A DNA stretch of 64,000 nucleotides from Anniella stebbinsi (lineage: Eukaryota; Chordata; Lepidosauria; Squamata; Anniellidae). Under the pieces are notes generated by a model. That model ran no database searches, had not been told where the DNA came from, and saw nothing but the letters and a program-made list of their open reading frames with translations. How positions within the stretch are numbered: the first letter of the stretch is position 1; each line of letters begins with the position of its first letter. The stretch lies in contig JARDYH010000003.1 in NCBI GenBank assembly GCA_029215795.1, forward strand, positions 68,883,109 to 68,947,108, read 5' to 3'. Positions 1,868 through 51,580 of the stretch are shown one piece after another. The position numbers and the translations under genes are program-made.

Positions 1868-2045
1868 AGAAACATAGGAAGCTGTCATATACTGTGTCAG
1901 ACCATTGGTCCATCTAGCCCAATATTGTCAACACTGACTGGCAGCAGATCTCAGGCAGAAGTATTTCAGCCCTACCTGGAGATGCTGGGGATGGAACCTG
2001 AGACCTTCTACATGCAAAGCACACGCTGTACCACTGAGCTATTTT
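1868..2045 (-). mobile_element. tRNA-derived SINE, antisense
   Basis: Read on the minus strand it begins with a tRNA-like head. The A-box-like ATAGCTCAGTGGTACAGC is followed by TTTGCATG and a degenerate B box (GGTTCCATCC), resembling tRNA-Ala(TGC). It continues through a body to a tail that resembles CR1/L2-type LINE ends (GGGCTAGATGGACCAATGGT). A second, plus-strand copy lies near 38.6 kb. Mutations make this an old copy. Confidence 0.7.
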
Positions 2046-2606
2046 TAGTATACCACAAATGCAGCAAAATAATATGTATTGTGCACATAGCACTTAGCAC
2101 TTAGCATGAGGCTTTCATTTTCTGTTTATATGGAGATGTTTTGATGTAGAACTTTCATAATATTTGAAGAAACCATTATTTGGAAATACATTGGGTTGGA
2201 TCCAGGTGGGCAAAGCAGTCCAACCCCCTGTCAAATACTAGCCATAGGGTTGATGGATGGAGAAGTGCCATTCTGTTGGTGAGATGACACTTTAACCCAG
2301 TTATGTTCTGGGGTTATATTGGGGCAGCCTTCGATCCAAGGATCCAAAGCCCTTTGTTCTCTTGACATGCCCTCTGATCAGGTCCCTCCTGCTGGTATTA
2401 GTGGGAGGGAGAATTTAAGAAAATGCTTGGGGAGAAAAAAACAATCCCCACCTTCTGCCCTGGTCTTTGCCATGGAAATCCCTCCACCCCCAACAATCCT
2501 AAATTAGTTGCAGTTGGCATCCATTGTAATCCTTGAGACAAATTATGACCTCTGATGTCAATGGAACCTAAGTGCAACTAGCTTTGGTTGCAATCCTATT
2601 TACTAG
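2046..2606. other. Unassigned sequence
   Basis: No supported gene. A 62-codon open stretch at 2319-2507 has no recognisable content. Confidence 0.55.
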
Positions 2607-2730
2607 AGGTAAGTAACCTGGAGCCCTCCAGATATTTTGGATTACAACATCAGCCCCAGCCAGCCAATGGTCAGGGATTATGGGAATTGAAGTCTAAAAC
2701 ATTTGGAGGGTAGGGGGTTGCCTAAACCTG
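2607..2730. repeat. Foldback hAT-like repeat (family FB130), copy 1
   Basis: Two arms around CCAGCCAGCCAATGGTCAGG are roughly complementary (CCTCCAGATATTTTGGA against AAACATTTGGAGGG). The same skeleton recurs at 31.7, 48.7 and 60.7 kb; the 31.7-kb copy shows a hAT-type 8-bp duplication. Confidence 0.6.
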
Positions 2731-2731
2731 C

Positions 2732-2808
2732 TATAGATATTTACTTACCTGAGAGTGTCTCATTGAAATCAATGAGACTTCTAAATAGACATGTATAGGG
2801 CTGCACTG
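2732..2808. repeat. FB80 foldback repeat, copy 3
   Basis: Palindromic core CTCATTGAAATCAATGAGAC with TTTACTTACC and TATAGGG arms, adjacent to the FB130 copy. Confidence 0.5.
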
Positions 2809-3544
2809 TTAGTCTGGATCTAATCTAATATTTTTAAGAACAGAGTGTATGTCAGGAATCTTTTTGCAATTTATGTATGTTTAAGTCCATTAACTTCTAT
2901 GGATCTAAATAAGGTTGACAATGGCCAGTAAACCCCCTCGCAGTGAATTAATTTTAAGTTTTTAAAATGGCAACAACAACAAAATGGAATGACGCTACAA
3001 AAGCTGTTCTCTAGAAGACTCTAGAATTCTTTAACCTTTTACAGAACACTAATAAATCACACTGAGACTACTTCCTCCCCATAGCAAATGCAGTGGACTC
3101 AGTGATAGTACTGACCCATGTGCAATGTAAGTTATTTGAATAGGTTGCCAGGGGCTGAGTGCCTCTGAACTTATGCTGAGTTCTTGAGGAAATAAATCTT
3201 TCCAAAAATTGCCCAAGGACATAGTTCTACAAATATGTGCAGCGTGCCTTCCTTTGTGAAAGGATGCTTCCCTTTGCCATCGCAGAGCAGCTTTTAGATT
3301 AATTTTTGCAGGAAAACCAAAAGGAGATAGGGAGCTTCTGAAAGGGAAACTTGGTCTTGGTGGCATACAATTACTTCCCTGATCAAAGGTTGATCTTAGG
3401 ATGGTGAAAGAAATCAAGGAGATAGTCAAAAGAGAAAATATAACAATGTGTGTTTTCAACTTCCCTCATTAACTGAGTAAATGTGTATTCAGATTGTGAC
3501 AAAAAGACATGGGGCTGTTTGTATGTCATGGTGACATTCCACAG

Positions 3545-3793
3545 CAAATTGTGGATTGATTGATTAATTAATTAACCCATGATTTATGGGGATGTATGCT
3601 GCATGTGACCCACTTCCATTTTCTGTAAATAACTTCTGATCGGCCCATAGGTTAACCGCTGGTTTGTTTAGCCCCTAAACAACCCATTGGTCTAAATTTG
3701 TATGTCACATTCACAGAAATGTGACATACAAAACGGCTCACAGGTGGCATGCATCCCTGCAAATCATGAGTCATTTAAATAATTGACAATTTG
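3545..3793. repeat. ~250-bp foldback element with 15-bp central hairpin
   Basis: The ends are CAAATTGT and ACAATTTG. The next arms (CATGATTTATGGGGATGTAT against GCATGCATCCCTGCAAATCA) are complementary with mismatches. The centre is a perfect 15-bp hairpin at 3697-3732 (TTTGTATGTCACATT and its complement, 6-nt loop). It is probably a non-autonomous DNA element. Confidence 0.6.
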
Positions 3794-3967
3794 CCACCAT
3801 TTGTTAACTGGATCAACTTTTCTAGATGTGACACATTACTGTACTGTAGAACTTTTATAAAGTGAGCTGATAGTGAGGAGGTGACCCTTGATGATCCTGA
3901 GTGATGCCAAGGATCTGGCATGCTATGTTAATGATGTTGAACAGTTTAAGAATGGTGACTATACTGT

Positions 3968-3999
3968 TGTCAAATTCTCTCTCTCTCTCTCTCTCTTTA
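3968..3999. repeat. CT dinucleotide microsatellite followed by TA run
   Basis: Simple (CT)n tract followed by TATATATA. Confidence 0.9.
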
Positions 4000-4189
4000 T
4001 ATATATAGAGTAGTAAATTGTTTAGAAGATCCAACATGGCCACATTTTAACTTCAGAAGACGAAACTTAGTTAAAAGTAAGTGAAAAGGAAGAGTGAAGA
4101 GAGTGAAGAGAGTGAAATATCTTCAGGATACTTGAAAGTTATTTAAATTCAAGATAATAAACACTCAAATAGAATGTATATCTTAGATT

Positions 4190-6165
4190 AGGAAAGGTAT
4201 AAATAAGTCCCATGGGGATGCCAGCATGGTTAACCAGCAGAGTCAAGGAAGCTATAAAAGGTAATAAGGCTTTCTTTTAAAAAGTGGAAATCTAGCCTAC
4301 ATGAGGAAAAATATGGAAGACTGCAAATTTTGCTAAAACTAATGTAAATAGATGATAAGGGAAAGAAAATAATGACTTTTGAGGAGCACGTTCCATGAAA
4401 CCTTAAGACAAATAATACAAACTTGGCTACTTATCAGAAGCAGGAAACACAACATGAAGGCTGCTGGACTATTCAGTGACAAAGATGTGAAAGGATTAAA
4501 GGAGAATAAAGAGATCGCAGAGAAGCTGAACAATTACTATGCATCGATATTTGCAACAGAAGATATTGGACAGATAGCTAGGCCTGAACTATTTTTTTTC
4601 TAGAAAGGTGCAGGAAGAATGGTCAAATAGAAGTGATGAGAAATGAGGTTTAGGAAAATCGACAAATTAAAAATGATCAAGCTATTGGGTCTAAATGGTA
4701 TATACCCAAATGTGAAACTGTTGATCTTCTAACAACAATATACTACTTGTCACAAAAATTGGATTTTGTACTGGAGGTTTGGAAGGTAGCCAATGTAAAC
4801 ATGAATCTTAAAAAAGGGATCCAGAGGGAGCTAGAAAATTACAAGCCTATTAACATAACATCTGTCATGGGTAAATTGGTAGAAAAGCATAATTAAAGCC
4901 AGAATTGTTGAATATATAGAAGAATAAGCTTGCTGAGGAAGTATTGGCATGGCTTCTGCAAAGGAAAATCCTGCCTTTTATGTATATAGTAGAGATCTGG
5001 TAATCCATTATATAATTGGATTTCTAAACTTTTGGACACAGTTCTGCACTAAGTTCTCCTAAGTAAACTTTGCAGTCATATAATAAAAAGATTATTAACT
5101 AGTTATAAAAGAGGTAGCTGTGAACAGACAAGTGTTCACAATACAGCAGGTAAGCTTTGCAGTGCCAAAGGGTCTGTATTGGGACAGGTGCTATTTAACT
5201 TGTTCATGAAATAATCTGGATTGGGGTGAACTGTGAGTTGGGGTGAGCAGTGAATTAGGTGTCTTCTACAAATTTGTGGAGGACACCAAATTATATAGAA
5301 AGGTGAAAATCCAGTTGGACTTTAAGGAGCTCCAAACTGTGTGAATGGACAACAAAATGGCAAACGAAGATCAATGTAAGTAAAGTGATCCACAGTGGGG
5401 CAAAAATCCCAATTTAAGATATATTGATATTATCTGAACTGGCTGTGACTAACCAGAAAAGAGATCTTGGGATTGTGGTGGATAGCTCAGAGAAAATGTC
5501 CTAGGTGCTGCAGCATTAAAGAAGGCAAATTCCATGCTAGCGATTATTAGGAAAGGAACTGAAAATAAAATGGTCAGTATAATAATGTTCTTGTATAAAG
5601 CTGTAGCCACACTTTAAATTCTATGTGTTATTTTGGTTATCTTGCTTCAAAGAGGATATCATAGAGCTAGAGAACGTGTGGAAAAGAACAACCAAAATAA
5701 TCAATGGAGTATCTTTCCTCTTGGGAAAGATGGAAGCGTTTGAGGCATTTTAATTTACAAAAAAAAGACACTCGGGGATGTGGACATGGTAGGGATTTAT
5801 AACATTATTCGTGGGGTGGAGGAAGCAGATAGAAAGAAGTTCTATATACTATAACTTGGGGACACCTATTGGTGTTAGATTTTGGATGGACTTCTTTACC
5901 CAATGCTTGATTAAGCTCCTTAAATTTCATGTTTTTGGTGGAAAGGCAGCGTTCAAATCAAACCAAATAATCAATAAATGATTTAATGGAATTCACTTTC
6001 ACAGTATGTGTTTAAAATGGGATTAGACATGGAATATCCAGATCCACAGGCAGTAGCTCCTGAATATCTGCAGCTACTGCATTAGGAGAGGGTCTTGCTG
6101 TAGGCTTCTCACAAGCATCTGGCTGGCCACTATTGGAAACAGGATGCTGGATCTGGTGGATCTTT
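4190..6165 (+). mobile_element. Old CR1-like LINE remnant (type A), pol fragment and 3' end
   Basis: A decayed non-LTR retrotransposon. Translated pieces in shifting frames match CR1/L3-type pol. Early residues include CATGGTTAACCAGCAGAGTC (a PAWLT-like motif) and a segment reading AEKLNNYYASIFATED near 4520-4560. Later comes GSVLGQVLFNLF at about 5172-5207, the RT motif usually written GVPQGSVLGPxLF. The 3' part (5440-6165) carries the CR1 C-terminal region (EKRDLGIVVD-like text near 5460) and the 3' UTR text GGCTGGCCACTATTGGAAAC. Stops and frameshifts are frequent, so it is non-functional. The same family recurs at 21.4, 44.2-45.8 and 61.1-62.1 kb. Confidence 0.8.
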
Positions 6166-21592: not shown

Positions 21593-21749
21593 TTTCTTCT
21601 TCGTGGTCTCTGTGCATCACACATATGGGCTCCGCGCCGGCGCCGAGCCCCAATCGGGAAACTTCACTAGCTAGCTTAGTGATTTTTGGCGGGAACCCCT
21701 CCCCCACCATCCATTGCGCATGCTCCGGGTCCCGCCTCACCTCAGTTCT
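21593..21749 (+). repeat. Left inverted terminal repeat of the DIRS element
   Basis: From about 21619 to 21749 this is the exact reverse complement of the right repeat (27518 to about 27648), roughly 130 bp by eye. The outermost ~25 bp differ by small gaps: the left copy lacks AG, A and T that the right copy has. The internal complementary region keeps the left version and the right version separately. The repeat is CpG-rich, with the self-complementary core GCGCCGGCGC and an ACTAGCTAGCTTAGT motif. In this family the left repeat is expected to hold the promoter, but I see no clear TATA box. Confidence 0.93.
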
Positions 21750-21951
21750 TCTTCGACCGCTTGCTGATCGCCTCGCGGGAGACTTCTTCGAACGACTTCC
21801 GTTCGTATTACTCTGAAAATTAGAGAAAAATAGTGTTAGTTTAGCTTAGTGTTAGTGTTACAGTTAGTGTTAGTATTAGACTTCGTTAGTTTGAAAAAAA
21901 AAAAAAAAAATTCTATATACAAATATATATATCTTATATATTGGGTCAATT
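21750..21951 (+). other. DIRS leader between left repeat and Gag
   Basis: This 200-bp untranslated leader starts GC-rich and becomes AT-rich. It has several GTTAGTGTTAG-like iterations at 21835-21875 and an A-run at about 21895-21910. It ends directly at the Gag ATG. I see no reading frame of note in it. Confidence 0.7.
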
Positions 21952-24351
21952 ATGGCGCAGTCAGCGCTGTTTAAGCATTGTTCCCGCTGTAGGGCAAAGT
22001 TAACTTTGACCGATGGACACTCTTTGTGCCTCGTCTGTTTGGGGGAAGGGCATGTCGTGGACTCCTGCCCACACTGCATGACTTTTTCCCGCCAAACCCG
22101 GCGGATTAGGGCGGATAGGCTCCGCAGTCTGCTCTGGAGCAAGGCCCTATCCGCGGTTGACCGACCTCGCCAACGTTCTCGATCTCCTCTTCCGTTGGAC
22201 TCAGATACCGAACGGTCAAATTCCGGTGAGCGTAGGCGAACGCCCCAAAATCGCTCGCAACCGGCATCTCCCTGCTCGCCCCCTATGGAGGAAGCAGCAG
22301 AGGCTCCCTTGCCACGACTCGTCTCGAAGCCGACCAAAAAGACCGCGACAACGAAAAAGTCGGGCAAGACTAAAACTAAATCGACAAAATCAAAACCGTC
22401 GTCGTCGACTCCGAAACCTTCGACGTCGACGCAGGGAGAGGGTCGATCCACTCCGAAGCGACCATCGACTTCAGCTCTGGAGCCTCCGTCGGCGCCGAAA
22501 CGATCTTCGGCATCGAGTGTTCAACAGCGACCATCGACCTCAACTCCATCGGCGTCAAAGCGATCTTCGGCATCGGGCGCTCCTTCGACATCGAAGCGGC
22601 CGTCGGCGTCGAAAATACACCAACCGAAGCCTGCTTCGACGTCGAGTCGAAAATCGACTTCGTCGACACCGAGGCGGCCGGACCCGGCGGCGCAGGAAGG
22701 CTCTACACCGCCGATGCCATCACGCCAGCCGTCCCTGCCATCGAGGAGGCACTCGACACCGACACCGGCCCGACCGGCCTCGTCACCGATCCCATCTCAA
22801 CGATCCACTTCGCTGGCCCACAGGGCTACGTCGCTTCCACCTCGTCCAATCCAATCCGTAGACATAGAAATCTGCTCTTCTGACGTCGAGCTCGTCGATG
22901 TTATACCATCGGATGTATCTGTAGACCACGACGTCGACAACCGTACCGATGTCGACTATACGCAACGGCCGTTGCCAGTCGGTATCGTGGCTTCCCCGGT
23001 GTCGAGATCCTCAAAGACAACAGGACGGTCTCGATCCCGTACCCGATCCCGATCCAGATCGCGATCCCGTCGTTGGGACTCGTATTCGGATAGGTCCAGA
23101 AGTCGATCCCGGCACCGCAGTGCCCCGCGTTATTTATTTGACCCCTATACAGGGAAGAGAATTGGAAGGCACGCGTCGCAGCGCAGACAGCAACACAACA
23201 CCGCACGACAACTTCCTTCTGTGACGTCGGTACAACCATCGACGGCAGTGGTGCAGCGTCCCCTCTCGCCTACTTCGGGCGATGGCTATGCGTCAGACAC
23301 ATCTTCGGAACGCTCTCAAGCACCTTCAGTTCCGTCTCCACCAGGGGGCATTGGGTCGAAGGATAGACCATCCCCATCACTGGAACTAGGTTCCTTCTCG
23401 GACCAAATGCAAAGAATGGCTCAATCCCTTGGCCTGGACGTCGATCAGCCACACGAGGATCTGAATGATAAGATATACGACGTAATGTATGCGGAACCAG
23501 CACCTCAACTCACCCTTCCGTTAGTACCTACGCTTCTTAAAACTTTTAAAGGCGCATGGGAAAATCCAGCCACGGTGGGAGCTACGTCAAAACGTTTAGA
23601 TACATTGTACAGGGTCAAAGACGTCGAAGCTCCTTTCTTGAGTCAACACCCAAGACCAAATTCTATTATAGTAGAGTCCTCGCAAGGGCGCTCGACAAAA
23701 ACCCATTCCACCCCTGTCGACAAGGAAGGTAGGAAGCTGGATGCATTTGGGCGCCGGATTTACTCGTCGGCGACGTTGGGTTTTAAAGTAGCAAATTATC
23801 AAGCTACCATGGCCAGGTACCAACTCTTCCTCTGGGAGAAAATTTCTACACTAACAGACTATCTCCCAGACGACCAACGTGAACTGGCCCGAGTTTTCCA
23901 GGCAGAAGCAACCAGACTGTCTAGGCAGCAATTAACAACTGCAAGCCACCAGACAGATTGTACAGCCAAAGCTCTGGCAGGAGCAATCGCATTGCGTCGC
24001 CATGCATGGCTACGCTCGTCCACGCTACCAACCGAGACAAAAGCCCGTATTGAAGACCTCCCGTTTGACGGGGAGGGGCTCTTTCACTCATCCACAGACA
24101 ATACAATGGACGTTATTCATAAGTCTAAGATAACAGCACGCAAGATGAGCGCCCCTGCGGTACAACAAACGCAACAGCAATCTAGGCCACGACGTTGGTA
24201 CCGTTCTTTCCAGTTTCAGCCCCGGCGGCAACAAGAACGCACCCAACGTTTCCAATCTCAGCAGACACAATCCTCTTTCCAGTCTCGGAAGCCTGCCAAC
24301 AGATACACCAAATCACGGCGGCAGGATCAGTCGACGAAACGGCGCCTTTGA
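21952..24351 (+). CDS. gag: Gag-like protein of DIRS element (799 aa)
   Basis: This is the putative nucleocapsid/capsid ORF1 of the DIRS element. The N-terminus is cysteine-rich: C10-x2-C13, then C26-x2-C29-x4-H34-x4-C39-x2-C42. It therefore contains the CX2CX4HX4C zinc-knuckle spacing, but at the N-terminus rather than the C-terminus. Residues ~110-300 are low-complexity Ser/Thr/Pro/Lys/Arg. Residues ~355-395 form an Arg-Ser dipeptide tract like that of SR splicing proteins. Residues ~500-720 are more ordered and are the likely capsid-like region. The C-terminus (~720-799) is Gln/Arg-rich and probably binds nucleic acid. The ATG has G at +4 and is the first in-frame ATG after the leader. The frame ends in TGA (24349-24351) followed by C. 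Beyond that stop the same frame stays open into the recombinase ORF. The Gag role is inferred from position and composition; there is no close sequence signature. Confidence 0.85.
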   Translation: MAQSALFKHCSRCRAKLTLTDGHSLCLVCLGEGHVVDSCPHCMTFSRQTRRIRADRLRSLLWSKALSAVDRPRQRSRSPLPLDSDTERSNSGERRRTPQNRSQPASPCSPPMEEAAEAPLPRLVSKPTKKTATTKKSGKTKTKSTKSKPSSSTPKPSTSTQGEGRSTPKRPSTSALEPPSAPKRSSASSVQQRPSTSTPSASKRSSASGAPSTSKRPSASKIHQPKPASTSSRKSTSSTPRRPDPAAQEGSTPPMPSRQPSLPSRRHSTPTPARPASSPIPSQRSTSLAHRATSLPPRPIQSVDIEICSSDVELVDVIPSDVSVDHDVDNRTDVDYTQRPLPVGIVASPVSRSSKTTGRSRSRTRSRSRSRSRRWDSYSDRSRSRSRHRSAPRYLFDPYTGKRIGRHASQRRQQHNTARQLPSVTSVQPSTAVVQRPLSPTSGDGYASDTSSERSQAPSVPSPPGGIGSKDRPSPSLELGSFSDQMQRMAQSLGLDVDQPHEDLNDKIYDVMYAEPAPQLTLPLVPTLLKTFKGAWENPATVGATSKRLDTLYRVKDVEAPFLSQHPRPNSIIVESSQGRSTKTHSTPVDKEGRKLDAFGRRIYSSATLGFKVANYQATMARYQLFLWEKISTLTDYLPDDQRELARVFQAEATRLSRQQLTTASHQTDCTAKALAGAIALRRHAWLRSSTLPTETKARIEDLPFDGEGLFHSSTDNTMDVIHKSKITARKMSAPAVQQTQQQSRPRRWYRSFQFQPRRQQERTQRFQSQQTQSSFQSRKPANRYTKSRRQDQSTKRRL

Positions 24352-26248
24352 CTCCGTTCCTGTATCACTACCACGCCATTACACCAGGCTTCAACCCTTT
24401 GTGCAACACTGGGCGTCCATAACGACCGACAAATGGGTGCTCTCCACAATTTCAACAGGTTACCTTATAGAATTTCGAGCTCTCCCTCCTCTAGGTACCG
24501 TGAGGACCACTCTACCATCTCCCACGTTGTTACAGGAAACAACAACCCTGTTGCAAAAGAACGCAATCACCCGCGTTCCCACGCGGCTCTTAAAAGCGGG
24601 TTTTTACTCGCGTTACTTCACGGTTCCAAAGAGAGACGGGGGGCTTCGACCCATAATGGATCTCAGACGTTTAAACAAATTTGTCAAACCAAAGAAATTT
24701 CGCATGGTTACGTTAGCCCAGATCCTTCCGCTTCTAAAACGCCATCGGTGGTTCACCTTGGTGGATCTCAAGGATGCATATTTTCACATTCCTATCCACC
24801 CCACTCATCGCAAGTATCTGAGGTTCGTTATAGGAAAAAAGGCCTATCAGTTTTCGGTCCTTCCGTTTGGCCTCCGGTCTGCACCAAGGGTCTTTACCAA
24901 ATGTATGGCGGCGGTCTGCGCCCATCTCAGGTCACAGAACGTCGAACTATACCCTTACCTCGACGACTGGTTAATCGTTTCTCCATCCCAGTCGCGAGCA
25001 CGCTCCGACGTCCGCATTGTCACGTCATGCCTCACCAGCCTGGGCCTGCAAATAAACAAAGAAAAGTCCATTTTTCGCCCAACGAAAATGATTCAGTTTA
25101 TAGGGGTTGTCTTAGACTCGACTGTCGGACGAGCATTCCTGCCCACGGATCGCATTCAAACCGTTGTGTCTCTTGCCTCGCAGCTGCGAAAAAGCACGAG
25201 TGCAACTGCATTCACTGTGCTCCGTCTGCTAGGCTACATGGCTTCTGCAGTGTTTGTCGTCCGCTGGGCTCGTCTCCACATGCGGCCGCTGCAGCAGGTA
25301 CTCCTCCGGCGTTACCGTCCTCACCTAAATCCGAAAAAAATAGTACTTACGATTCCGTCGTCTCTCCTTCCGTCGCTCCGTTGGTGGTCGTCGGCAACTC
25401 ATCTGTCCAGAGGCATGCCTTTTCACCAAGAAGGTCCCACTCGAGTCGTCACTACCGATGCTTCTCTAGAAGGGTGGGGCGCACACTTCAACGACCTGAA
25501 AATTCAAGGAAAATGGTCGAAATCAGAGTCGCGGCTCCATATAAACCTCCTAGAGTTCCTAGCTGTAAAACGGGCACTGCATGCTTTCTTACCACACCTT
25601 CAAGGGCAGCATGTCCGCATAATGTCAGACAACACCACTGTGGTGTGGTACGTCAACAAGGAAGGCGGGACACGATCTCCTCGCATTCTGCGTTTGGCAT
25701 TAGACATTCTACATTGGGCTATTCGCAACGATATCGAGCTGTCGGCACTTCACATTGCGGGCGCAGACAATGCGAAGGCGGACGCCCTCAGCCGAGAGTT
25801 CACCGACACCCACGAGTGGGAGTTGGATCGGAACGTACTGGCTCGCCTATTTGCAAGATGGGGCACACCATCCATAGACCTGTTTGCGACTTCTGCAAAT
25901 GCTGTTTGCCGGGACTATTGTTCCCGTGCGGGGATTGGACCTGCATCGCTCGGAGATGCATTCCACTGGGACTGGTCCAACGACTTCCTGTATATATTCC
26001 CCCCGTTTCCGCTTATTGCGAAGACGGTAGCAAGAGCAAGCAGATGCTCCTTGGACGCGATTCTGGTGACCCCTTGGTGGCCGAGACAACACTGGTTCAC
26101 CACCCTCTATCGCCTGTCAGGACAACAGTGGTGGCGCCTACCCATGATACCGCGCCTACTATCCAGGGATGCGGGAGCCATCCTGCACCCGAATCTCCAG
26201 TCGTTGCACCTCACAGCGTGGAGGATCCAACCAGGTGGCAATCTCTAA
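24149..26248 (+). CDS. pol: DIRS reverse transcriptase / RNase H / Dam-like methyltransferase polyprotein
   Basis: The frame is open from 24149 (after a TGA) to the TAA at 26246-26248 and overlaps the end of Gag by ~200 bp in the +1 frame. No ATG occurs in it before 24656, which already lies inside the RT domain. Frameshifting or another non-standard start is therefore likely. Residues are numbered from 24401. RT: VPKRDGGLRPIMDLRRLNKF (~75), FTLVDLKDAYFHIPI (~118), LPFGLRSAP (~154), and the catalytic YLDD at 186-189. RNase H (~345-470) shows the acidic residues in TTDAS, LLEFLAV, MSDN and NAKADALSRE. A third domain (~473-612) has the DIRS methyltransferase-like pattern (RWGTPSIDLFAT, FPPFPLI, LVTPWWPRQHW). 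It reads FPPF where Dam-type enzymes have D/NPPY/F. The domain order RT-RH-MT is diagnostic of DIRS elements. Confidence 0.93.
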   Translation, partial: APLRYNKRNSNLGHDVGTVLSSFSPGGNKNAPNVSNLSRHNPLSSLGSLPTDTPNHGGRISRRNGAFDSVPVSLPRHYTRLQPFVQHWASITTDKWVLSTISTGYLIEFRALPPLGTVRTTLPSPTLLQETTTLLQKNAITRVPTRLLKAGFYSRYFTVPKRDGGLRPIMDLRRLNKFVKPKKFRMVTLAQILPLLKRHRWFTLVDLKDAYFHIPIHPTHRKYLRFVIGKKAYQFSVLPFGLRSAPRVFTKCMAAVCAHLRSQNVELYPYLDDWLIVSPSQSRARSDVRIVTSCLTSLGLQINKEKSIFRPTKMIQFIGVVLDSTVGRAFLPTDRIQTVVSLASQLRKSTSATAFTVLRLLGYMASAVFVVRWARLHMRPLQQVLLRRYRPHLNPKKIVLTIPSSLLPSLRWWSSATHLSRGMPFHQEGPTRVVTTDASLEGWGAHFNDLKIQGKWSKSESRLHINLLEFLAVKRALHAFLPHLQGQHVRIMSDNTTVVWYVNKEGGTRSPRILRLALDILHWAIRNDIELSALHIAGADNAKADALSREFTDTHEWELDRNVLARLFARWGTPSIDLFATSANAVCRDYCSRAGIGPASLGDAFHWDWSNDFLYIFPPFPLIAKTVARASRCSLDAILVTPWWPRQHWFTTLYRLSGQQWWRLPMIPRLLSRDAGAILHPNLQSLHLTAWRIQPGGNL

Positions 26249-27264
26249 ATCTGCCCCCTCCCCTACGGTCCATTTTCGAAGCCTCCACAAAACCATCTAC
26301 CCGGGCTTCTTACACTAGAAAATGGAACCGCTTTCTGAAGTTTGCCAATGACAGGGGATTCTCAGCTCGCGATGGTCCCGTTACAGGGATTATCGATTTC
26401 TTGTACTCCCTTTATGAAGAAGGTCTGAAGCCCTCCTCTGTCAAAGTATACCTGGCGGCCATTTCGGGGCAACATACTAAGATCAATGGGTTTACAGTGT
26501 TCTCACACCCAGTGGCGAAAACGTTCATGAAGGGCTTACGCCACATGTTCCCCCCAGTACGACAGATTATTCCTCAATGGAGCCTGTCGGTGGTACTGAC
26601 GGCGTTAACGAAAAAGCCGTTTGAACCGTTGGCCACAATTGACCTCCGACTACTAACATTTAAGACTGTGTTCTTAGTAGCTATAACATCTGCTAGACGT
26701 GCTTCGGAGTTAGCGGCGCTCATGGTGGGCCCCCCCTATACTCAATTTTTTCAGGATAAAGTTGTGTTACGTCCTGGTCCCTCGTTTATTCCTAAAGTTT
26801 CTTCCATGTTCCACATTAATCAAGATATCGTCTTGCCTACGTTCTTTAAGGCGTCTACCGATCCACTTTGTACAACGTTACATTCTCTGGATGTTCGGCG
26901 TACGTTAGCGTTCTATAAGACAAGGACACAGTCGATCCGAAAATCTGATAAGCTGTTTATCTGTTATGGGGGTAAAACGAAGGGGTTGGCAGTTTCCTCC
27001 CAACGTTTAGCCCACTGGATTGTTGACACTATTATTCTTGCATATCAAGTTCTTGGCAAGCAGCCTCCAGAGTCGTTCACGGCGCATTCCACGAGGGGGC
27101 AAGCCGCGTCGACAGCCCTGATACACGGATCAACAGTCCCGGATATTTGCAGGGCAGCGACATGGTCAACCGCTTCAACCTTCGTGAAGCACTACAGACT
27201 GGACGTGAGAGCGGCACGGGACGCCTCATTCGGACGGGCAGTCTTGTCTTCTATCTGTCAATGA
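24433..27264 (+). CDS. Tyrosine recombinase ORF, with a long 5' part overlapping RT
   Basis: The recognisable recombinase is the C-terminal third, from about 26265 (residue ~612) to the TGA at 27262-27264. It begins with a core-binding-like segment (PSTRASYTRKWNRFLKFAND). Catalytic residues are R756 (SARRASEL), H885 and R888 (HSTRG), W911 (ATWST) and nucleophile Y921 (VKHYRLDV), the R-H-R-W-Y set of tyrosine recombinases. Its role is to recombine the circular cDNA into the genome. The ATG at 24433 opens a frame that covers essentially the whole RT ORF. Residues 1 to ~600 resemble nothing I know and may be overprinted or untranslated. The frame is the same as Gag, with one TGA between them. 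Expression could be by UGA readthrough, reinitiation or a spliced/internal start; the sequence does not decide between these. Confidence 0.9.
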   Translation: MGALHNFNRLPYRISSSPSSRYREDHSTISHVVTGNNNPVAKERNHPRSHAALKSGFLLALLHGSKERRGASTHNGSQTFKQICQTKEISHGYVSPDPSASKTPSVVHLGGSQGCIFSHSYPPHSSQVSEVRYRKKGLSVFGPSVWPPVCTKGLYQMYGGGLRPSQVTERRTIPLPRRLVNRFSIPVASTLRRPHCHVMPHQPGPANKQRKVHFSPNENDSVYRGCLRLDCRTSIPAHGSHSNRCVSCLAAAKKHECNCIHCAPSARLHGFCSVCRPLGSSPHAAAAAGTPPALPSSPKSEKNSTYDSVVSPSVAPLVVVGNSSVQRHAFSPRRSHSSRHYRCFSRRVGRTLQRPENSRKMVEIRVAAPYKPPRVPSCKTGTACFLTTPSRAACPHNVRQHHCGVVRQQGRRDTISSHSAFGIRHSTLGYSQRYRAVGTSHCGRRQCEGGRPQPRVHRHPRVGVGSERTGSPICKMGHTIHRPVCDFCKCCLPGLLFPCGDWTCIARRCIPLGLVQRLPVYIPPVSAYCEDGSKSKQMLLGRDSGDPLVAETTLVHHPLSPVRTTVVAPTHDTAPTIQGCGSHPAPESPVVAPHSVEDPTRWQSLNLPPPLRSIFEASTKPSTRASYTRKWNRFLKFANDRGFSARDGPVTGIIDFLYSLYEEGLKPSSVKVYLAAISGQHTKINGFTVFSHPVAKTFMKGLRHMFPPVRQIIPQWSLSVVLTALTKKPFEPLATIDLRLLTFKTVFLVAITSARRASELAALMVGPPYTQFFQDKVVLRPGPSFIPKVSSMFHINQDIVLPTFFKASTDPLCTTLHSLDVRRTLAFYKTRTQSIRKSDKLFICYGGKTKGLAVSSQRLAHWIVDTIILAYQVLGKQPPESFTAHSTRGQAASTALIHGSTVPDICRAATWSTASTFVKHYRLDVRAARDASFGRAVLSSICQ

Positions 27265-27310
27265 TCCACCAGCGTGCATCCCCTCCTCCGGTAAGTTTGG
27301 CTGATTACTC

Positions 27311-27405
27311 GCCCATATGTGTGATGCACAGAGACCACGAAGAAGAAATGCAGGTTGCTTACCTGTAACTGTAGTTCTTCGAGTGGTCATCTGTGCATTC
27401 ACACA
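27311..27405 (+). other. Internal complementary region (ICR) of DIRS element
   Basis: Positions 27311-27348 are the exact reverse complement of the left terminus (21593-21630, 38 bp). Positions 27346-27405 are the exact reverse complement of the right terminus (27644-27703, 60 bp). The two halves overlap at AAA (27346-27348), the complement of the TTT at each end. This is the classic DIRS arrangement: the ICR templates both ends and lets the linear cDNA close into a circle. It lies 46 bp after the recombinase stop codon. Confidence 0.95.
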
Positions 27406-27517
27406 ACCCGCCCACCATCCCCTCGTGCAACGCTAAGGTGTATGCAGGAGTTTTTTTTTTTAGGGCGCATATGCTTCTAATCTATTGCCTTAGGGCGAGG
27501 CCATAATGCGGTCTCAG
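27406..27517 (+). other. Spacer between ICR and right repeat
   Basis: About 110 bp of non-coding element sequence with a T-run near 27450 and no recognised motif. It is not part of the inverted repeat. Confidence 0.6.
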
Positions 27518-27703
27518 AGAACTGAGGTGAGGCGGGACCCGGAGCATGCGCAATGGATGGTGGGGGAGGGGTTCCCGCCAAAAATCACTAAGCTAGCTAG
27601 TGAAGTTTCCCGATTGGGGCTCGGCGCCGGCGCGGAGCCCATATGTGTGAATGCACAGATGACCACTCGAAGAACTACAGTTACAGGTAAGCAACCTGCA
27701 TTT
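27518..27703 (-). repeat. Right inverted terminal repeat plus 29-nt right extension
   Basis: Positions 27518-27674 pair with the left repeat. Positions 27675-27703 are a terminal extension with no partner in the left repeat but with an exact complement in the ICR. A right-end extension of this size is a known property of DIRS-1. The flank resumes at 27704 with no duplicated target. Confidence 0.92.
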
Positions 27704-38989: not shown

Positions 38990-39000
38990 TATCATACGTT

Positions 39001-39317
39001 AGGGTGACCAGATAAAATCCAGGTCAGGGCTCATGTAACTTTAACAGTTGTAGAGAAAAGGGCATTTCAGCCAGTGTCATTTGTATGCAATTAGTTCCTG
39101 GTGAAATTCCCTCTTCATCACAACTGTTAAAGTTGCAGGGGCCCTGCCTTCTTTTGTATATGGTCACTCTAGTATAGCTCCTGCAGCTTTAACTGTTGCG
39201 ATGAAGAGGGAATATCACCAGGAACTAATTGCATACAAATGACACTGGCTGAAATGCCCTTTTCTCTACAACTGTTAAAGTTACATGAGCCCTGACCTGG
39301 ATTTTATCTGGTCAGCC
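39001..39317. mobile_element. Near-palindromic MITE (317 bp) with 11-bp flanking duplication
   Basis: The two halves are close reverse complements over almost the whole length, e.g. AGGGTGACCAGATAAAATCC against GGATTTTATCTGGTCAGCCT, and CTCTTCATCACAACTGTTAA against TTAACTGTTGCGATGAAGAG. It is flanked by TATCATACGTT on both sides (38990-39000 and 39318-39328). An 11-bp duplication is longer than hAT and closer to MULE. Its ends match the 29.8-kb element. Confidence 0.85.
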
Positions 39318-39328
39318 TATCATACGTT

Positions 39329-50329: not shown

Positions 50330-51139
50330 ACCACAATCGAGGGAGAACAGAAAAATGTACACATAACTTAATACAAATAAAATTTTAATTTTAATGACTG
50401 TGAAAAAAAACGTTGTTTTTTTATGGTATCCACTTGTATGGTTTTTGCTGGCATGATGCAAACAGTAATGTTACGAATATTGATTGCCTCACAAATAAAT
50501 CTTGAGTAAGATGTAGAAATACAACTTCATCGATAACATCAGTATATTTATTACTTCTCACCTTACCACAATTAAAAAATTCATTAATACAGAACACCGT
50601 ACTGGTGGCCTAGGAATAACTTTAGATAGATAGATCTAGCTTCTCTCCCTTTCAATCCTGCTCAAGTTTTAGAAAATTAGATTAAATGTGAAAAGCATTT
50701 ATCTGATCTGATATGTGACCTGGCTCTTACAAAATCTAAAATTTTAACTTTTTCATTCAGTATCTTTTCTTTTTTCTTCACTCTTCTGCTCTGGACACAT
50801 ACTAAGTTGATCTTGTAAATTAAAAAGAATCAGTGACCTGAAACTGGTCATTTCTTTGGCTTTGTTCATTTTACATCAAGAGCCAGTGCCGGCAAAAATT
50901 AATTGGTGCATATCATCAGAAGAGAGAGAAAGACATGAGGAAATAATAACATCTTCAAATTTTAACTACTAATTTAAGATGAGCTGGAAGGTAAAAACCT
51001 AAGGCTGGGATCTTGGAAATTGGGATCTTTGCCTGAATGACCCCTAACCTGTGTGTATGTCCAAGGATTCCACAGTAGTATTTGTTGGGGGGTCTTTATT
51101 GAATGTGGATGCCAAGTTTATTTATTTGTTTTATTTATA
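50330..51139. other. Unassigned sequence
   Basis: Nothing supported. Confidence 0.45.
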
Positions 51140-51580
51140 AAGTATAAAGTGTTGGTTATTACCTTTAAAGTCCTACATGGTTTGGGTCCAGGTTACCTGC
51201 GGGATCGCCTTCTCCCGTATAATCCGCCCCGCACACTCAGGTCCTCTGGGAAGAATTTACTCCAGTCAGCCAGAACTAGGCTGACGAGTGTTACCCAGAG
51301 GACCTTCTCTTCTGCCGCTCCCAGGCTGTGGAATGGCCTGCCGGAGGAGATTCGACAAATTAGCAGTCTTCTGGAATTTAAGAAAGCCGTGAAGACTGTT
51401 CTCTTCCGGCAGGCCTATCCAGTTTAATTTTAAGATGTTTTTAATAATGTATTTGTTTTTATCTGTTTTAACGGTTTATCTATTTTATTGTTTTATATTT
51501 ATATTTGGTGTTGTTCCCCGCCTCGATCTAGATGGAGAGGCGGGTTAGAAATGAAATAAATAAATAAATAAATTTATAAC
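51140..51580 (+). mobile_element. 5'-truncated L2-like LINE with intact pol C-terminus
   Basis: 51140-51427 is open to a TAA and encodes the L2-type pol C-terminus: VITFKVLHGLGPGYLRD, then RTFSSAAPRLWNGLPEEIR and FKKAVKTVLFRQAY. A 3' UTR with GTTGTTCCCCGCCTCGATCT follows and the element ends in (AATA)n at about 51555-51580. The ~95 codons contain no stop or shift, so this copy is comparatively young. A second tail of this family lies at 57836-57965. Confidence 0.8.

What the first reader, a model, noticed from the sequence alone, without database searches (positions are those of the whole stretch)
21593..27703. Apparently intact, young DIRS retrotransposon in a vertebrate genome
The inner terminal repeats are identical over ~130 bp, both ends match the internal complementary region exactly (38 and 60 bp), and Gag, RT/RNase H and recombinase frames are all open with catalytic residues present. 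CpG is dense, as in sequence not yet eroded by methylation. Most vertebrate DIRS copies are decayed, so this could be a recently active master copy.
Basis: partly seen in the sequence, partly recalled or inferred. Interest (0 to 1): 0.9.

Follow-up and report, generated by a model that had tools for sequence, protein, structure and literature searches.

The report
Young DIRS element with shifty stop
A recently inserted, apparently complete jumping element of the DIRS kind sits in what is probably a lizard genome; it is an ordinary member of its kind, but comparing its copies points to a ribosome frame-shift signal that would make its reverse transcriptase and to the DNA sequence at which it inserts.

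Summary
Confirmed: window 21594-27703 is a full-length DIRS1-like tyrosine-recombinase retrotransposon. ITRs (133/133), both terminus-ICR pairs and all three frames are intact. It is young: two sister copies are 99.8-99.9% identical, three more 98.4-98.9%; against the two closest it has 2 private substitutions, neither at a CpG. "Master copy" is not shown: 7 of 21 copies read are open in all frames, and other families in the genome have their own near-identical pairs. Active DIRS in lizards were already known, so the element itself is ordinary.

Three results go beyond the finding. (1) Gag ends in CTT TGA C, the "shifty stop" of bacterial prfB, in 41 of 41 copies; selection switches there from the Gag frame to the +1 (RT) frame, and most copies offer no early AUG, so RT is most likely made by +1 frameshifting. 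(2) The recombinase frame, in phase with Gag, stays open through 1.9 kb of RT without amino-acid conservation. (3) Insertions prefer G|TT (G in 39 of 41 left flanks), with flanks resembling the circle junction; an empty-site paralogue of another copy lies in this window (39094|39095). Frameshifting is inferred, not measured.

The parts
21594..27703 (+). whole DIRS1-like element, 6110 bp (TT...TTT); base 21593 is most likely the target's
21594..21630 (+). left terminus, complementary to the left ICR
   Evidence: 38 nt counted from 21593, 0 of 36 mismatches
21617..21749 (+). left inverted terminal repeat, conserved part
   Evidence: 133 of 133 complementary
21952..24351 (+). Gag ORF, 799 aa; N-terminal Cys/His-rich motif and an Arg-Ser-rich stretch (read by eye)
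   Evidence: purifying selection, mean dN/dS 0.10 over 9 family representatives; weak LAP2alpha match below cut-off
24346..24352 (+). CTT TGA C at the Gag stop: proposed +1 frameshift site
   Evidence: CTTTGACTC in 21 of 21 full copies and 20 of 20 further copies
24350..26248 (+). RT / RNase H / Dam-like methyltransferase frame (+1 relative to Gag), first codon GAC overlapping the Gag stop
24352..26245 (+). Gag-phase frame kept open through the RT region, upstream part of the recombinase ORF
   Evidence: no amino-acid constraint
24433..27264 (+). long recombinase ORF from its first ATG, 943 aa
26194..27261 (+). tyrosine recombinase domain; catalytic R 26698, K 26794, H 27085, R 27094, W 27163, Y 27193
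27311..27348 (+). left internal complementary region
27346..27405 (+). right internal complementary region; AAA junction 27346-27348 shared with the left ICR
27518..27650 (-). right inverted terminal repeat, conserved part
27644..27703 (+). right terminus, complementary to the right ICR
   Evidence: 0 of 60 mismatches
39035..39154 (+). paralogous empty site of ANOTHER copy (C2:57492627-57498721); insertion point between 39094 and 39095
   Evidence: joined flanks of that copy match 117 of 120

Best explanation
The finding is a recently inserted, structurally complete DIRS1-like retrotransposon, one of at least ten copies of 95% identity or more and of several sister families in the same genome. 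Steps shown by sequence: intact ITRs, ICR and three frames; insertion without target duplication at G|TT; flanks that resemble the junction the ICR predicts for a circular intermediate. Steps inferred: RNA is copied to cDNA, the ICR serves to restore the two ends, the recombinase joins the circle junction to a matching G|TT site. Expression, inferred from anatomy and selection: ribosomes translate Gag to CTT TGA C; most stop (Gag), a minority slip +1 on CTT and go on in the RT/RNase H/methyltransferase frame. The recombinase comes from the long Gag-phase ORF that lies over RT, by internal initiation at the ATG 28 codons downstream, by reading through the same UGA, or by splicing; these three are not resolved.
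For: Anatomy. Youth: 99.8-99.9% sisters; 2 private substitutions and 0 CpG transitions in the window copy, against 8 (6 CpG) and 7 (4 CpG) in its sisters; different flanks, so not segmental duplicates. Frame switch: pN/pS in the last 66 Gag codons 0.18; RT frame upstream of the stop 1.42, in the first 50 codons downstream 0.27. CTTTGACTC in 41 of 41 copies. First ATG of the RT frame is 102-103 codons downstream in 16 of 21 copies, while R12, L13, W20, D26 of that frame are invariant across 10 relatives. Relatives: Phe-Asp, the frame reading of TTT GAY, upstream of the RT domain in 11 of 45 anchored sequences, 1.84 expected from composition. CUU UGA with a following C is the prfB shifty stop (PMC13245932 passages; PMC3500957 table); UGA_C raised both +1 shifting and readthrough in antizyme reporters (PMC9841425 passages). 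Recombinase: AlphaFold model pLDDT 83.7, best Foldseek matches Cre-family chains, top E 4.2e-9. Integration: G at -1 in 39 of 41, empty site.
Against: No frameshift was measured, and no RNA evidence was available. No stimulatory structure: the 121-nt stretch folds no better than shuffles (z 0.97), and 1 of 15 predicted pairs shows a two-sided change. 4 of 21 copies have an early ATG in the RT frame (codon 4 in two, codon 55 in two). 34 of 45 anchored relatives lack Phe-Asp, 206 of 251 proteins could not be anchored, and several dipeptides are commoner. Of 12 Gag relatives only two end in Leu or Phe after a basic tail (P0127, P0129); one with a similar tail ends in Gln (P0121), and the rest are chimeric or cut models. 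Several NCBI gene models join Gag to the recombinase, which would fit splicing. DNA of distant families was not obtained: the genome search stayed unreachable.
Confidence: 0.83

Rival explanations
1. RT, the recombinase, or both are expressed by splicing rather than recoding.
For: Gene models in other species join Gag to the recombinase (P0150 Anolis sagrei, P0152 and P0155 Sceloporus, P0172 Rhineura, P0176 Xenopus); three Sceloporus models (P0126, P0152, P0155) share a similar junction after the RMRT..KKH motif.
Against: Selection switches to the RT frame right at the stop codon, leaving no room for an intron unless it is tiny; the site itself is invariant in 41 of 41 copies. A spliced Gag-recombinase would not need the whole 1.9-kb frame kept open. 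Whether the gene models rest on RNA reads is unknown to me.
Confidence: 0.15
2. The recombinase is made by reading through the Gag UGA (a Gag-recombinase fusion) rather than by initiation at the ATG 28 codons downstream.
For: Gag and recombinase are in one phase, with a single stop between them in the window; after it 970-971 codons are open in 10 of 21 copies; UGA followed by C is a weak terminator (passages).
Against: The 27 codons between stop and ATG show no constraint (pN/pS 2.11) and are too few to prove openness; 20 of 45 relatives' ORFs of 900-1010 aa begin Met-Gly, as the ATG inside the RT motif D-[K/R]-W-V would give; initiation there needs no recoding.
Confidence: 0.3
3. The near-identical copies are segmental or assembly duplications, not transposition.
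For: Only one assembly was seen.
Against: Flanks of the copies do not match each other apart from dispersed repeats; copies lie on different contigs; insertion sites share a motif and one has an exact empty-site paralogue.
Confidence: 0.02
4. G at -1 is added by the element (non-templated or heteroduplex repair) rather than chosen in the target.
For: The circle junction predicted by the ICR has T there, and almost all left ends show G.
Against: The empty-site paralogue has the G already; other preferred bases lie further out in the flanks. It is one site only.
Confidence: 0.08

Closest known systems
AcDIRS2 of Anolis carolinensis (Table 3 of PMC3266345, passages seen)
   Same: 5997 bp, starts TTT, AAA circular junction, long ORF overlap, conserved ITR 136 bp, divergent ITR 26 bp, right extension 28, ICR 39-60: almost the same anatomy
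   Different: 6110 bp here, conserved ITR 133 bp; ends TTT instead of TGT. No sequence of AcDIRS2 was compared.
DIRS-1 of Dictyostelium (PMC5633606 section 8, read)
   Same: ITRs, ICR, three overlapping ORFs, recombinase, proposed circular intermediate
   Different: DIRS-1 is described as targeting its own copies without apparent sequence preference; here a G|TT preference with junction-like flanks is seen
Xenopus DIRS-like families (PMC9210276, passages)
   Same: three ORFs with overlap of ORF2 and ORF3, Dam-like domain, LAP2alpha-like Gag, TTT at both ends
   Different: expression mechanism not discussed in the passages seen
prfB (RF2) and antizyme +1 frameshift sites (PMC13245932, PMC3500957, PMC9841425, passages)
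   Same: slippery P-site codon followed by a slow UGA stop, then continuation in the +1 frame; CUU UGA C is the prfB core
   Different: no upstream Shine-Dalgarno-like element applies in a eukaryote and no downstream pseudoknot like that of antizyme was found

Membership tests
DIRS1-like retrotransposons | inverted terminal repeats | tested here: met
   133 of 133 complementary
DIRS1-like retrotransposons | internal complementary regions matching both termini and overlapping on a 3-bp junction | tested here: met
   0 mismatches in both pairs, AAA shared
DIRS1-like retrotransposons | RT and RNase H | tested here: met
   RVT_1 E 1.7e-27, RT_RNaseH E 1.3e-7
DIRS1-like retrotransposons | Dam-type methyltransferase domain after RNase H | tested here: inconclusive
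   Pfam Dam E 0.0019, 18.3 bits, below the 28.1-bit cut-off; the region aligns with relatives
DIRS1-like retrotransposons | tyrosine recombinase with catalytic R, K, H-x-x-R, W, Y | tested here: met
   Pfam alone gives only a sub-cut-off match (Phage_int_SAM_1)
DIRS1-like retrotransposons | no target-site duplication | tested here: met
   empty-site paralogue of a sister-family copy; the window copy's own empty site was not found (search unanswered)
DIRS1-like retrotransposons | circular DNA intermediate | not testable with these tools
   only implied by the ICR and the target logo
PAT-like and Ngaro-like YR elements | split direct repeats | tested here: not met
   no long direct repeats between the ends; the terminal repeats are inverted
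LTR retrotransposons and proviruses | direct LTRs and a DDE integrase | tested here: not met
   no direct terminal repeats; no integrase, protease or envelope family among the Pfam matches up to E 0.1
programmed +1 frameshift sites | slippery P-site codon next to a stop, with a conserved ORF continuing in +1 | tested here: met
programmed +1 frameshift sites | stimulatory RNA structure | tested here: not met
   such a structure is common but not universal (recalled)
programmed +1 frameshift sites | measured frameshift product | not testable with these tools
   needs a reporter, ribosome profiling or peptides

The most novel reading that the evidence does not exclude
One slippery stop codon, CUU UGA C, is the switch for the whole element: termination gives Gag, +1 slippage gives Gag-RT-RNase H-methyltransferase, and in-phase readthrough gives a Gag-recombinase fusion, with the overlapping frame kept open only so that ribosomes can cross it. 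The +1 part may be an old, shared expression device of DIRS elements from lizards to frogs and beyond, and not yet described.
Probability: 0.25. Interest if true: 0.8.

Novelty: new member of a known kind. Interest (0 to 1): 0.45.

Why it matters
How DIRS elements, with three overlapping frames and no obvious start for RT, make their enzymes has no answer in the passages I saw. A conserved shifty stop gives a direct, cheap test. If right, it would make DIRS an animal retroelement group that uses a prfB-type +1 signal, and the invariant heptamer could serve to annotate Gag-RT products. The target logo and the empty site give the first constraint in these data on the recombinase's DNA preference in a vertebrate. 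As an observation of a young element alone it is ordinary.

Tried and rejected
Splice-acceptor targeting: left flanks ending in AG suggested it, but no pyrimidine tract shows up in the position counts, so it was dropped for a recombinase half-site. A 3-bp TTT core: dropped, because the base before TT at the left end is the target's. Amino-acid coding by the recombinase frame inside the overlap: rejected (ratio 1.76 against 1.53 in the third-frame control; one of nine 210-nt windows fell to 0.80). A conserved RNA stimulator: not found. Distant relatives' DNA in viral contigs: none. Rfam on the window: no match. Whether +1 shifting in DIRS is in print: searches and passages of PMC3266345, PMC3783388, PMC6681497, PMC4157794 and PMC9210276 showed none; PMC5009743 gave no match for the terms tried, and only its first 300,000 of 475,107 characters are held. 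The founding papers of Goodwin and Poulter are not in the library, so priority is open. For a DIRS target preference: search and section 8 of PMC5633606 only.
Full report
Observation. The window lies in an unnamed 1.89-Gb assembly in 91 contigs. At 21594-27703 there is a 6110-bp element with 133-bp perfect inverted repeats and an internal region complementary to both termini. GC and CpG content are far above the flanks (CpG observed/expected 1.06 against 0.15 and 0.21).

Identity. The RT frame matches RVT_1 and RT_RNaseH; a Dam-like match is below its cut-off. The recombinase domain is hardly seen by Pfam, but in an alignment with 23 relatives the catalytic R, K, H, R and W are invariant and the Tyr is present in 23 of 24 rows; an AlphaFold model (mean pLDDT 83.7) matches Cre-family recombinases best (top E 4.2e-9, TM-score by query 0.63). 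The closest RT relatives are 54% identical; the named ones near the top are Pogona, Chrysemys, Pelodiscus, Pleurodeles and Varanus. The host is therefore probably a squamate; it was not identified. The anatomy is nearly that of AcDIRS2 of Anolis (PMC3266345, passages).

Age and copies. Searches score only the best 40 of 1,929 to 4,318 first-look candidates, so copy numbers are lower bounds. Ten places, the window included, are 95% or more identical over 1 kb of the recombinase. I read 21 full copies: sisters at 99.8-99.9% (two), 98.4-98.9% (three), about 96% (two), about 95% (two), and eleven at 81-86%. Inside several of the other families pairs differ by only 0.46-2.85%. Against its two closest sisters the window copy has 2 private substitutions, none a CpG transition, plus 3 gap columns; the sisters have 8 (6 CpG) and 7 (4 CpG), so ageing copies lose CpGs here. 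With a neutral rate near 1e-9 per site and year (recalled) 2 in 6110 is of the order of a few hundred thousand years; this is rough. Flanks of the copies do not match each other except in dispersed repeats. By my thresholds 7 of 21 copies are open in all three frames; no copy is singled out as a source. Against the 11 divergent copies the ICR (99.8%), the termini (99.5-99.6%) and the ITRs (97.4%) are far more conserved than Gag (78%), the overlap (85%) or the recombinase (83%), as expected if these ends are rebuilt by pairing and bound by the recombinase.

Expression. Gag and the recombinase ORF are in the same phase, separated in the window by one UGA; RT is in the +1 phase. RT has no ATG until codon 102-103 after the Gag stop in 16 of 21 copies (four have one at codon 4 or 55, and in one the first is at codon 369), yet residues from position 12 on are invariant among ten relatives. 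Selection switches at the stop: pN/pS 0.18 in the last 66 Gag codons, 1.42 in the RT frame before the stop, 0.27 in the 50 RT codons after it. The switch point reads CTT TGA C in every copy seen: 21 of 21 full copies and 20 of 20 further copies taken from the right-end list, although neighbouring codons vary. For scale, third positions of four-fold codons in Gag are invariant in 65 of 435 cases and CTN leucine codons in 6 of 19, so the codon alone is not decisive; the whole unit is. CUU UGA plus C is the core of the bacterial prfB site (PMC13245932 and PMC3500957, passages), and UGA_C weakens termination in favour of both +1 shifting and readthrough in antizyme reporters (PMC9841425, passages). 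In relatives the signature should appear as Phe-Asp in the RT frame: 11 of 45 anchored sequences have it, 1.84 expected; controls DF 3, FE 1, YD 1, LD 1, FN 2, ID 0, FG 7. These include Pogona and a frog, and four read Phe-Asp-Ser just as here. The sequences are related, so the count is not a probability. Gag C-termini agree in Pogona (...KQYL) and Anolis (...RRRF) and disagree in one Varanus protein (...RRRQ); the other nine are chimeric or cut. No stimulatory RNA structure was found.

The overlap. Shuffling synonymous codons of RT gives on average 19.7 stops in the Gag-phase frame, minimum 8, none in 2000 shuffles as low as the observed 0; the other frames and the Gag and recombinase regions behave as expected. 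The amino acids of that frame are not conserved (ratio 1.76, control frame 1.53). So ribosomes seem to cross this frame, but the peptide hardly matters. Five of 21 copies carry a stop there and two carry one in RT, as expected of ageing copies. Of 119 recombinase relatives read, 45 are 900-1010 aa long and 20 of these start Met-Gly, which fits a start at the ATG inside the RT motif D-[K/R]-W-V; ORF callers would choose that ATG anyway. Long overlaps in DIRS are known (PMC3266345). Gene models of other tetrapods that join Gag and recombinase leave splicing open.

Integration. From 41 left and 41 right flanks: G before TT in 39 of 41 (p 4.9e-24 against flank composition), A at -9, C at -7, A at -2, T at +2 and +9; every enriched base apart from the G equals the base of the circle junction predicted by the ICR (32 positions were tested, so only the strongest count). 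At the right end the core is TT in 36 of 41 and TA or AT in 5. One copy sits in a dispersed repeat of which an unoccupied relative lies in this window: its joined flanks match 39035-39154 in 117 of 120 positions, with the junction ...ATTAG|TTCC... between 39094 and 39095, no duplication and no loss. This is what recombination at a short TT core predicts.

Verdict. The element is an ordinary, young DIRS1-like retrotransposon. The shifty stop and the target logo are the parts worth following up.

Noticed in passing
27684-27692: The right terminus carries CAG|GTAAGC, a perfect-looking splice donor, 12 bp from the element's end; the same 20 bp are seen in nearly all of the 41 right ends printed (motif position). 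Its use is unknown.
   Followed up: no
38999-39320: Two inverted copies of a dispersed repeat lie next to each other; one is the empty-site paralogue of a DIRS insertion elsewhere.
   Followed up: partly
L013 (about 3623-4705): One 98% copy carries an insert of about 1.1 kb in gag.
   Followed up: no
22951-23140: Gag contains a long Arg-Ser repeat like that of splicing factors (read in the translation); role unknown.
   Followed up: no
51053-51427: A 124-aa ORF ending in a stretch that resembles the tail of LINE-type reverse transcriptases (-style listing; resemblance recalled).
   Followed up: no
relatives P0034-P0119: Many fish RT frames show a different conserved stretch, GA[I/V/L/T][A/T]P, upstream of RT; fish DIRS may use another junction signal.
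   Followed up: no
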